A stretch of 64,000 nucleotides of DNA from Oligoflexus sp. (GTDB lineage: Bacteria; Bdellovibrionota_B; Oligoflexia; Oligoflexales; Oligoflexaceae). Location of the stretch: assembly GCA_014378195.1 (NCBI GenBank), contig JACMOC010000061.1, positions 186,001-250,000 on the forward strand, written 5' to 3'. Within the stretch, counting starts at the first letter, position 1, and the number at the start of each line of letters is the position of its first letter. The notes under the pieces were generated by a model. That model ran no database searches. It was not told where the DNA came from and saw only the letters and a list, made by a program, of their open reading frames with translations. The translations under genes and the position numbers were made by a program. This document shows positions 13,703 through 16,631 of this stretch, in pieces.

Positions 13703-14299
13703 ATGAAAGAGACTAGGACCAAAATAGAACGTGATTCGGCGGCTGTCCGTAAGGACAAGCTCATGGGTGCGGCGCTTAAATTATTTTCCGAATTTGGATT
13801 CCACGGTGTGGCCGTTCCGAAGATCGCGAAGGATGCGGGCATGTCGACCGGTTCGGTCTACAATTATTTCGAAAGCAAAGAAGAGCTGGTCAACGAACTC
13901 TTTTGGGTTTGGAAAGACCAACTCAAAAGTTATTATCTCACTGATTATCCCATGACCGAAAACACCGAAGGTCAATTTATTTTCATCTGGAACAGGCTCC
14001 ACCAGTATGCCCATGATTTTCCGGATGCATTTCAATTCATTGAAAGCCAGCTTCACTCGAGTTATCTGACAAAAGAGTGTGCTGATCTTGAAGAGGAGGT
14101 CTTTGAGATAGGCCGGATGTTCGTGCGAGGTGGACAAGCAGCCGGTGTTTTGCGTGACAATGATCCGCAGATGATAGTCGCGTTCTTTTTTGGGGCTTTC
14201 GTGCAGTATTTTAAGGACACTCGGGCCTGTCGACAGAAGTGGAGCCTCGAGGCGAGTCTCGAGGTTCGCGATCTGTGTTGGACGTCTATGCTAAAGTAG
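13703..14299 (+). CDS. TetR-family transcriptional regulator
   Basis: A 198-residue repressor. The N-terminal helix-turn-helix covers residues 15-65, with KIAKDAGMSTGSVYNYFESK as positioning and recognition helices. The C-terminal ligand domain is helical and has no named subfamily I can assign. It has 10 bp to the convergent methyltransferase gene. The nearest TetR-type palindrome in the window is at 16806-16821, before the polyketide synthase operon, so it may control that operon; this is inference. It may also control itself. Confidence 0.9.
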   Translation: MKETRTKIERDSAAVRKDKLMGAALKLFSEFGFHGVAVPKIAKDAGMSTGSVYNYFESKEELVNELFWVWKDQLKSYYLTDYPMTENTEGQFIFIWNRLHQYAHDFPDAFQFIESQLHSSYLTKECADLEEEVFEIGRMFVRGGQAAGVLRDNDPQMIVAFFFGAFVQYFKDTRACRQKWSLEASLEVRDLCWTSMLK

Positions 14300-14309
14300 G
14301 ATCACAAGA

Positions 14310-15056
14310 TCAAAGCTTCCTGCCATAACCCATATACCCAAGACTCAGCCCTGAAGTGAACTTAAAATCAAAGTCCTTGTGAACCTTGCGTGTCAAAACC
14401 GAGGCAAAAAATGGCCAGTGAAATATACAGGGCCTAAGGCCACGCATGTTTTTTATTTCTAACCCGGCCGTACGCAGCATTTCTTTGAGCTCGACCGGTT
14501 TGATAAACATCCGAAGAAGATGAAAGTTCTTAGGGCAGTCCCTGGCGATGAACTCGACGGCATGGACAGCCAAAAGACCCGCAATAAACGTACGGTTGAA
14601 TGTATAAAACAGCATGATTCCACCCGGTTTCAGAACGCGGGAGGCCTCTTTGATCGCTAGTCCGGGCTGTTCAACATGCTCTAGAAAATCGAGTAGCATC
14701 ACGGCATCAAATGTTGCATCGGGATAATCCAATCCGAAAGCATTGCCCGCCCTATAGGTGACATTCGCGCCTTCAGGGGCGTGGCGAAGGGCCACTGCAA
14801 CCGAACTTGCCGATTGATCCACACCGTGCATCTCATAGCCATCGGCTGCAAGTTTATTGGAAATCAATCCGGCCCCAAATCCCACGTCGAGGATCTTTGC
14901 GCCCTTCGGTAGATTTTCAGCAGCAAATATTTCGCGAACGTAGATGGTTTTCACTTTCGACTCGGCTTTAAGTAGGCCGATGATGTGACCGTCATCATTG
15001 TACCAACGTTCATCAAGTTCATCGTAAAAATCATTATTAATGACTGCTTCGGACAT
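14310..15056 (-). CDS. UbiG-like SAM-dependent O-methyltransferase
   Basis: A 248-residue class I methyltransferase. The start is ATG at 15056 (MSEAVINN), which overlaps the end of the membrane-protein gene by 20 bp. The N-terminal FYDELDERWYNDDG resembles the W-W-D-x-x-G entrance of UbiG. Motif I is ILDVGFGAGLIS (residues 55-66), followed by an acidic GVDQS loop and DAVMLLDFLEHVEQP. UbiG methylates phenolic hydroxyls of ubiquinone precursors; here the neighbour is a type III polyketide synthase whose usual products are alkylresorcinols or alkylpyrones, so methylation of that phenolic lipid is the likely role. Last gene of the operon. Confidence 0.85.
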   Translation of the reverse strand: MSEAVINNDFYDELDERWYNDDGHIIGLLKAESKVKTIYVREIFAAENLPKGAKILDVGFGAGLISNKLAADGYEMHGVDQSASSVAVALRHAPEGANVTYRAGNAFGLDYPDATFDAVMLLDFLEHVEQPGLAIKEASRVLKPGGIMLFYTFNRTFIAGLLAVHAVEFIARDCPKNFHLLRMFIKPVELKEMLRTAGLEIKNMRGLRPCIFHWPFFASVLTRKVHKDFDFKFTSGLSLGYMGYGRKL

Positions 15057-15495
15057 AATAGACGTTCCAATATAAATGTTGATACACGCCCCAGAGAAAA
15101 ACGCCAAGCGGCAGAGCCTTGAGTTCCCAGATCGTCGGATCGAGGACCCACACCACTCCGATAATAACGAGTAGGGCGCCGTGTAAAATGAAAAGTAACG
15201 AGTGACACCACTGTTCGATGGGACTGCAGGCCTCTGCATGAATCCACTCATCCTTGGTGATAAGGAGAGAGGAGGCAAAAGCTAGTATAATAAAAACAAT
15301 CACGGCTATCCGCGAAGGCTCAAAAAAAGCAGGCACACACACAGCGGCACAAAATAGACTTGTGTCAGCAACGTGACCCCAACGTTCGAAGCGCTCAAGG
15401 CCACGGCGATGATGAAAGATGCCTTCATCGATAAACATCATCAGAGCCTGGAGACCAGCGCAGAGCATCAAAATCAGACGCAAAGTGTCTATCAT
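15037..15495 (-). CDS. small integral membrane protein of the type III PKS operon
   Basis: A 152-residue protein with four hydrophobic segments (about residues 1-20, 48-75, 95-120 and 128-147) separated by short charged loops, one with HHRRGLERFERWGH. The start is taken at ATG 15495, just after the stop of the synthase gene, with AGGA inside the synthase tail; a GTG nine bases earlier is possible. I do not recognise the family. Its place between the synthase and the methyltransferase, coupled on both sides, implies a part in making, modifying or moving the same lipid. Histidines in loop 1 and near the C-terminus (YQHLYW) could bind metal. Confidence 0.8.
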   Translation of the reverse strand: MIDTLRLILMLCAGLQALMMFIDEGIFHHRRGLERFERWGHVADTSLFCAAVCVPAFFEPSRIAVIVFIILAFASSLLITKDEWIHAEACSPIEQWCHSLLFILHGALLVIIGVVWVLDPTIWELKALPLGVFLWGVYQHLYWNVYYVRSSH

Positions 15496-15497
15496 AT

Positions 15498-16631
15498 TTA
15501 ACACTTCCTAAGGAGATTCATCGTCAATGTAAGGCCTGGGCCGAAAGCCATGGATACGATTAATTCGCCTCTTTTCACGGTACGATCCTCCTGCATGGAC
15601 TTCCAGACATGAGGGAGAGTTGCTGATGACATGTTGCCATGTTTCCTGAGAACCGCTTTGCTGTGGCGAACGGATTCGTCGGGAAGGCCAAGTGTCTCCT
15701 GGATGGATTCAACAATGCGCGGTCCACCGGGGTGCACTGCGTAGCGCGTGACTTCGCTCCTCTTCACGCCGTTTTCTTCGAGAAAAGTTGCGAAGTGCTG
15801 CGCGATGACGCGATTCAGCTGAGTCACAACTTTGCGGCTAAGCGTCATATGAAAACGGGAATCCTGAAGATCCCAAGCCATATACTGCGAACTTTCGGGA
15901 ACGATTGCTTCGTAATGAGCAACGAGAGCCAAGGCATTGGGCGTTTCTTTGCGGCCGAGGTCCATCCGAGCGCAACCATCAGCAAAGAGGATATTGCTGA
16001 CAACTTGATCGGGGTCAGTCGCCAAAGGATCGAGATGCAGCGTGCAAAGCTCAGTACTTAAAACAGAGACTGTCTCGTCAAGGGCAACACTCCGCGTGAG
16101 CTGTGCTCCCATATGGACGCCTGGGATCGAAGCGTAGCAACCCATGTGTCCTAGCTTCAAGAGTCTCGTTTGATTCTCCCAGCCTTTTTCAAGCAAAAGC
16201 ATCTGAGCCGGGTAAGGGGCCCGGTATCCCGTACAGGAAATATCAACGATATATTTGGGAGCCTTCGTGGTTGCGGCAAAGGCGGAGCGTGCCATTGTTT
16301 GGGCTGCATCGACATAGATCTTCATACGATCCTGGAGCGGGGGCGCATACCAGGGGGAAACAGATCTATCGGAACGGACGGACTCCTTAAAGAGGGTCAT
16401 CTCATCCCAGGCGGTTTTTTTGAAATCAACAAGCACAGAACCACGCGCCTGAATATTGTCGTTGCCGAGAAGTCGTTCGTAGAGATTGAGGGCCTTCGAT
16501 CTTTGCTCGTCGGTGCCGTCGCGTTGGAGAGCCCTCATGATCCAGCCAATGCTCTCACCCTGAGTCATCTGATAAGGGGTCGGGATGGATTCGATTTTCT
16601 GGATATAAGCGATTGGTTCGACTGTCGACAT
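15498..16631 (-). CDS. type III polyketide synthase (chalcone/stilbene synthase family)
   Basis: A 377-residue homodimeric ketosynthase that extends an acyl-CoA starter with malonyl-CoA. The complete catalytic triad is visible: Cys165 in LGHMGCYASIPG, His300 in AVHPGGPRIVE and Asn333 in HGNMSSATLPHVW. The C-terminal GPGLTL loop is the family's GFGPG-type turn. Bacterial relatives with a downstream methyltransferase (for example the srs operon of Streptomyces and the bps operon of Bacillus) make alkylresorcinols and alkylpyrones for the membrane. RBS AAAGGA precedes the ATG. First gene of a three-gene operon with a TetR-type palindrome 175 bp upstream. Confidence 0.92.
   Translation of the reverse strand: MSTVEPIAYIQKIESIPTPYQMTQGESIGWIMRALQRDGTDEQRSKALNLYERLLGNDNIQARGSVLVDFKKTAWDEMTLFKESVRSDRSVSPWYAPPLQDRMKIYVDAAQTMARSAFAATTKAPKYIVDISCTGYRAPYPAQMLLLEKGWENQTRLLKLGHMGCYASIPGVHMGAQLTRSVALDETVSVLSTELCTLHLDPLATDPDQVVSNILFADGCARMDLGRKETPNALALVAHYEAIVPESSQYMAWDLQDSRFHMTLSRKVVTQLNRVIAQHFATFLEENGVKRSEVTRYAVHPGGPRIVESIQETLGLPDESVRHSKAVLRKHGNMSSATLPHVWKSMQEDRTVKRGELIVSMAFGPGLTLTMNLLRKC

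What the first reader, a model, noticed from the sequence alone, without database searches (positions are those of the whole stretch)
14310..16631. Three-gene type III polyketide cassette with an uncharacterised four-helix membrane partner
A complete Cys-His-Asn type III synthase, a small four-helix membrane protein and a UbiG-like O-methyltransferase are coupled by overlapping or adjacent starts. Known srs and bps operons pair the synthase with a methyltransferase; the middle membrane protein here is not one I know, and its histidine-bearing loops hint at an oxidase or a transporter. The likely product is a methylated alkylresorcinol or alkylpyrone in the membrane.
Basis: partly seen in the sequence, partly recalled or inferred. 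Interest (0 to 1): 0.68.

Follow-up and report, generated by a model that had tools for sequence, protein, structure and literature searches.

The report
Phenolic-lipid operon with unknown membrane partner
Oligoflexia bacteria carry a small operon that probably makes a membrane-bound phenolic or quinone-like lipid; its middle gene encodes a five-helix membrane protein of no known family that was found only in operons with this synthase and looks like an unrecognised modifying enzyme.

Summary
The three genes are real and placed as described: a type III polyketide synthase (15498-16631), a membrane protein (15037-15495) and a UbiG-like methyltransferase (14310-15056), all on the minus strand with a 2-base gap and a 20-base overlap. 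The synthase has an intact Cys165-His300-Asn333 triad and carries Trp253 where ArsB has its resorcinol-directing Trp281. The membrane protein has five helices, not four, and no match in Pfam, NCBIfam, PDB sequences or PDB folds. Its profile finds 18 loci in 17 genomes, all in the class Oligoflexia, and none in about 325 genomes outside the GTDB phylum. All 18 lie in one operon with a type III synthase, 17 of them directly next to it. Eleven of its 20 invariant residues are D, E or H, packed in two predicted cytoplasmic hairpins, which suggests a metal-site enzyme rather than a transporter. Cousin operons have a methyltransferase and a FAD oxidoreductase instead. The lineage has MenA and no sign of ubiquinone synthesis, so the UbiG-like enzyme needs another lipid phenol. 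Most likely reading (inferred): the membrane protein hydroxylates the alkylresorcinol ring and the methyltransferase methylates it, giving a methoxylated phenolic or quinone lipid.

The parts
15498..16631 (-). Type III polyketide synthase, 377 aa, ArsB/ArsC-like; triad C165/H300/N333; W253 at the ArsB Trp281 position
   Evidence: Pfam PF02797 71 bits; best PDB match ArsC 3vs9/3vs8, E 3e-40; residue mapping
15037..15495 (-). Five-helix membrane protein of unknown family, 152 aa from the conserved ATG (an in-frame GTG lies at 15504); invariant D26 E27 H31 R34 E40 G43 H44 D47 T48 S78 K84 E86 H89 E97 H101 L104 F105 H108 W119 Y141 (numbered from the GTG)
   Evidence: No Pfam or NCBIfam family; conservation; AF2 model pLDDT 79.6, five helices; N-out/C-in by loop charge
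14310..15056 (-). UbiG-like SAM-dependent O-methyltransferase, 248 aa, with the UbiG-type 'PKxxH..FIKPxEL' region
   Evidence: TIGR01983 127.8 bits, above cut-off; best PDB match UbiG 4kdc, E 1.7e-21
13703..14299 (+). TetR-family regulator, convergent with the operon; a neighbour, probably not part of the unit
   Evidence: PF00440/PF16295; not found in the flanks fetched beside other copies

Best explanation
A three-enzyme pathway for a modified phenolic lipid at the inner membrane. Step 1 (family assignment shown, product inferred): the synthase extends a fatty acyl-CoA or acyl-ACP with three malonyl units and folds the chain by aldol condensation to a 5-alkylresorcinol. Step 2 (inferred): the membrane protein, anchored by five helices with its conserved D/E/H residues on the cytoplasmic face, binds metal and hydroxylates the ring of the membrane-embedded alkylresorcinol. 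It would take the place of the FAD-dependent hydroxylase found in Srs, Hid and polyketide-quinone operons. Step 3 (family shown, substrate inferred): the UbiG-like enzyme O-methylates the resulting catechol or hydroquinone, giving a methoxylated phenolic lipid or, after oxidation, a ubiquinone-like alkylquinone. The unit as a conserved functional set is about 0.9 likely, an enzymatic role for the membrane protein about 0.6, and ring hydroxylation in particular about 0.4.
For: All 18 membrane-protein loci in 17 genomes are in operon with a type III synthase, 17 directly adjacent. In the phylum sample all 17 membrane-positive genomes have a synthase against 11 of the other 39 (Fisher p 4e-7, on counts; relatedness not corrected). 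Eleven of 20 invariant residues are D/E/H (hypergeometric p 1.5e-6), and 18 of 20 lie in the TM1-2 and TM3-4 hairpins, which are cytoplasmic by loop charge. Synthase operons in the same phylum and outside it pair with a methyltransferase and a FAD oxidoreductase, and a motif scan found no FAD monooxygenase in the flanks of the membrane-protein loci. UbiG acts on lipid catechols and hydroquinones (established family knowledge), and a resorcinol needs a further ring OH to become one. The genome has MenA, no Ubi-OHase above cut-off, and no UbiG above cut-off outside the two operon copies. O. tunisiensis makes only MK-7, with ubiquinones not detected (PMC4179278). Trp253 matches the ArsB Trp281 / ArsC G284W determinant. 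One genome without an adjacent methyltransferase, G043, carries its orthologue elsewhere.
Against: No homology or fold match ties the membrane protein to any oxygenase. The model rests on two sequences, and its coordinates could not be inspected for a metal site. Seven of 18 loci lack an adjacent UbiG-like gene. Four of those genomes hold only a UbiG-like protein of a different subgroup, and two, about 75% complete, hold only generic hits. Synthase+methyltransferase pairs without the membrane protein exist (L089, L096). The regex used for FAD proteins was strict: it missed the ones in L090 and L097, and a probable amine-oxidase-type FAD protein lies downstream in L033. PKS11, a pyrone synthase, also has the Trp.
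Confidence: 0.45

Rival explanations
1. The membrane protein is a transporter, flippase or lipid-handling protein that moves the finished phenolic lipid across or out of the inner membrane; synthase and methyltransferase alone make a methylated alkylresorcinol.
For: A small multi-helix membrane protein in a lipid operon; synthase+UbiG pairs exist without it, so the chemistry may not need it. Many Silvanigrellaceae-type loci also carry a GT9 (heptosyltransferase-like) gene, pointing to an envelope lipid.
Against: Invariant polar residues sit on one face, in two hairpins, not along a path through the membrane. No similarity to any transporter family above noise.
Confidence: 0.2
2. The membrane protein is a non-catalytic anchor or scaffold that docks the soluble synthase and UbiG-like enzyme on the membrane.
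For: Conserved surface faces the cytoplasm, where both partners are; tight translational coupling; strict linkage to the synthase.
Against: A docking surface rarely keeps eleven D/E/H residues invariant between proteins only about 30% identical. UbiG-type enzymes bind membranes by themselves (own knowledge).
Confidence: 0.2
3. The membrane protein is a strongly diverged ICMT-type membrane methyltransferase, as in bps-like operons, giving a doubly methylated product.
For: ICMT proteins of similar size lie directly after the synthase in cousin operons of the same phylum.
Against: Profile-profile comparison with those ICMT proteins gives probability 0.1%; the ICMT HPNY...E signature is absent; the operon already has a methyltransferase.
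Confidence: 0.04

Closest known systems
srsABC (Streptomyces griseus) and the related polyketide-quinone operons of Mycobacterium and Streptomyces
   Same: Three-gene operon: type III synthase making an alkylresorcinol, a methyltransferase and a ring-modifying enzyme; the product is a methylated alkylquinone (PMC9927152).
   Different: Here the methyltransferase is UbiG-like and the FAD oxidoreductase is missing; a five-helix membrane protein of unknown family stands in its place.
hidABC (hierridin, cyanobacteria) and the planctomycetal alkylresorcinol operons
   Same: Methyltransferase + oxidoreductase + type III synthase (PMC10896814; PMC8086630).
   Different: Other gene families for both tailoring steps; no membrane protein described in the passages read.
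ArsB/ArsC of Azotobacter vinelandii
   Same: Closest solved synthase (3vs8/3vs9, E about 1e-40); W253 matches Trp281 of ArsB.
   Different: The ars operon supplies fatty-acid synthase parts and no tailoring enzymes (own knowledge).
BpsA/BpsB of Bacillus subtilis
   Same: Type III synthase next to a small membrane protein.
   Different: BpsB is an ICMT-type methyltransferase (own knowledge); the membrane protein here is not ICMT-like.
UbiG
   Same: Methyltransferase above the NCBIfam cut-off; PKxxH..FIKPxEL region aligned to UbiG 4kdc.
   Different: The organism shows no ubiquinone hydroxylases and has MenA; the gene sits with a polyketide synthase.

Membership tests
Type III polyketide synthase | Chalcone/stilbene-synthase fold family with Cys-His-Asn triad | tested here: met
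   PF02797 above cut-off; C165/H300/N333
ArsB-type alkylresorcinol synthase | Trp at the ArsB 281 position, which directs aldol over lactone closure | tested here: met
   W253, invariant in the 17 membrane-linked synthases aligned; but the pyrone synthase PKS11 also has it
ArsB-type alkylresorcinol synthase | Makes 5-alkylresorcinol from long acyl starters | not testable with these tools
   Needs enzyme assay or LC-MS
UbiG O-methyltransferase family | Score above the curated UbiG cut-off, with SAM motif and UbiG-specific C-terminal region | tested here: met
   127.8 against 102.95 bits; alignment to 4kdc
UbiG as an enzyme of ubiquinone synthesis | Host makes ubiquinone (Ubi hydroxylases present) | tested here: not met
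   No Ubi-OHase above cut-off in G000 or in seven other genomes of the phylum; MenA present; genome 82% complete
Srs / Hid / polyketide-quinone operon | Type III synthase and methyltransferase in one operon | tested here: met
Srs / Hid / polyketide-quinone operon | FAD-dependent oxidoreductase or hydroxylase in the operon | tested here: not met
   No such gene among the three; flank scan of related loci negative, though the motif used was strict
ICMT membrane methyltransferase (BpsB-like) | ICMT profile match | tested here: not met
   hhalign probability 0.1%, E 0.64; no PF04140 hit
Membrane metal-dependent (e.g. diiron) hydroxylase | Metal-binding carboxylate/His cluster in a helix bundle | tested here: inconclusive
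   Invariant D/E/H set enriched and clustered; no fold or profile match to a known hydroxylase

The most novel reading that the evidence does not exclude
The membrane protein is the first member of a new family of small five-helix membrane oxygenases that replaces the flavin hydroxylase in a type III polyketide pathway, and the Oligoflexia operon makes a ubiquinone-like methoxy-alkylquinone by polyketide chemistry in menaquinone-only bacteria.
Probability: 0.2. Interest if true: 0.82.

Novelty: new variant of a known kind. Interest (0 to 1): 0.58.

Why it matters
Operons that make alkylresorcinols and polyketide quinones are known in several phyla, usually with a flavin oxidoreductase as the ring-modifying enzyme. 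An operon conserved across Oligoflexia that lacks it and carries an unclassified membrane protein in its place points to a new tailoring enzyme or a new lipid-handling part. The UbiG-like gene would be auto-annotated as ubiquinone biosynthesis in bacteria that appear to make none, a misannotation worth correcting. If the product is a quinone, it would be a candidate second electron carrier in this class of environmental bacteria.

Tried and rejected
Homologues outside the phylum: none in about 325 genomes, mostly one per family, nor in IMG/VR or plasmids; the marginal hits G370 and G005 (E 0.003-0.009) were set aside as noise. The Ignavibacteria hit L004 (32 residues, overlapping another gene's reading frame) was judged spurious. 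Weak NCBIfam hits of single members (FTN_0109, PgaD, MerT) score far below their cut-offs, some over short hydrophobic stretches, and were rejected. PDB and viral fold searches gave nothing significant. A PDB profile hit to an ammonia monooxygenase subunit (E 2.7) is chance. Divergent ICMT was tested and rejected. No palindromic TetR operator found near the operon start or the TetR gene; promoter scan no better than shuffles. The synthase tree gives weak support among membrane-linked synthases; they fall with ArsC, away from the ICMT/FAD-linked PKS11-like group, but are not shown to be monophyletic. The structure job used only window and L003 sequences, because the tool does not list whole-genome loci as allowed.

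Full report
Observation. The operon at 14310-16631 is real. On the minus strand it reads synthase (15498-16631), membrane protein (ATG 15495 to stop 15037) and methyltransferase (ATG 15056 to 14310). The first two are separated by 2 bases and the last two overlap by 20. The membrane gene's in-frame GTG at 15504 is not shared by its close copies, which begin at the ATG. Third codon positions vary most between copies, so all three are genuine coding genes. The window lies in a 4.66 Mb, 82%-complete assembly; a same-genus genome is labelled Oligoflexus sp.. The same genome has a second complete copy on contig C52 (66-79% identical proteins) and a third, solitary synthase (L092).

Synthase. Its nearest solved relative is ArsC of Azotobacter. 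The triad is C165/H300/N333. The residue that decides ring closure in ArsB/ArsC (Trp281 against Gly284; PMC6274091) is Trp253 here; 3vs8 (Gly) and 3vs9 (G284W) differ at that column. All 17 membrane-linked synthases aligned have Trp. This favours alkylresorcinol, with the caution that PKS11 makes pyrones and also has Trp.

Methyltransferase. It passes the UbiG equivalog cut-off, and the two operon copies are the only hits above it in the genome. No Ubi-OHase passes its cut-off in this or seven other genomes of the phylum, MenA is present, and the type strain of Oligoflexus makes MK-7 with ubiquinones not detected (PMC4179278). So 'UbiG' as a pathway label would be wrong here; a lipid phenol other than a ubiquinone precursor is the likely substrate.

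Membrane protein. No Pfam or NCBIfam family, no PDB sequence, no PDB fold. The AlphaFold2 model (two sequences, pLDDT 79.6, pTM 0.73) has five helices. Lys/Arg counts put the N-terminus outside and the C-terminus inside. Twenty residues are invariant in 14 aligned members, the most distant about 30% identical to the window's protein; 11 are D/E/H (p 1.5e-6) and 18 sit in two hairpins on the cytoplasmic side.

Linkage. The family occurs in 17 of 58 genomes of the GTDB phylum and in none of about 325 sampled outside it. Each of the 18 loci is in operon with a type III synthase; in G055 two genes intervene on the same strand. Eleven loci also have the UbiG-like gene adjacent. Of the seven without, G043 has an unlinked orthologue; G048, G050, G052 and G053 have a UbiG-like protein of another subgroup; G040 and G055 (both about 75% complete) have only generic hits. 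Most Silvanigrellaceae-type loci add a GT9 gene before the synthase.

Comparison. In the same phylum, another synthase group (PKS11-like) sits with an ICMT methyltransferase and, in most loci, a FAD oxidoreductase. Outside the phylum, relatives of this synthase sit with methyltransferase + FAD oxidoreductase (L144, L145, L147) or other genes, never with the membrane protein in the loci examined. Srs, Hid and polyketide-quinone operons share that plan (PMC9927152, PMC10896814, PMC8086630). The membrane protein thus stands where a flavin hydroxylase is expected. That is the main argument for a hydroxylase role, together with the conserved D/E/H set; it is inference, not homology. The ICMT alternative was tested and is unsupported.

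Verdict. A conserved, lineage-restricted variant of a known kind of operon, with one component of unknown family. The unit is well established; the chemistry of the membrane protein is a testable proposal.

Noticed in passing
G000 contig C52 4641-6967 (L036; also L002): Second complete synthase-membrane-methyltransferase operon in the same genome, 66-79% identical, so the organism may make two related lipids.
   Followed up: partly
L089 and L035 (G001 contig C5, about 10 kb apart): One contig carries the three-gene operon and, nearby, a synthase+UbiG-like pair without the membrane protein; looks like local duplication with loss.
   Followed up: partly
L023-L028, L030-L032, L034: A GT9 (heptosyltransferase-family) gene precedes the synthase; it may glycosylate the lipid or belong to LPS synthesis. 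Pfam-checked in L023 and L034 only.
   Followed up: partly
L155, L157, L158 (and the G053 match in L156): Unlinked UbiG-like proteins of another subgroup in genomes that have the synthase and membrane protein but no Ubi-OHase above cut-off; substrate unknown.
   Followed up: no
L087 4146-5132 and L088 5487-6434: ArsC-like synthase followed by a gene of about 320 aa (L087 copy without Pfam match), another possible unknown tailoring partner.
   Followed up: no
window 13703-14299: TetR regulator ends 10 bases from the methyltransferase stop, convergent; not seen beside other copies of the operon.
   Followed up: partly
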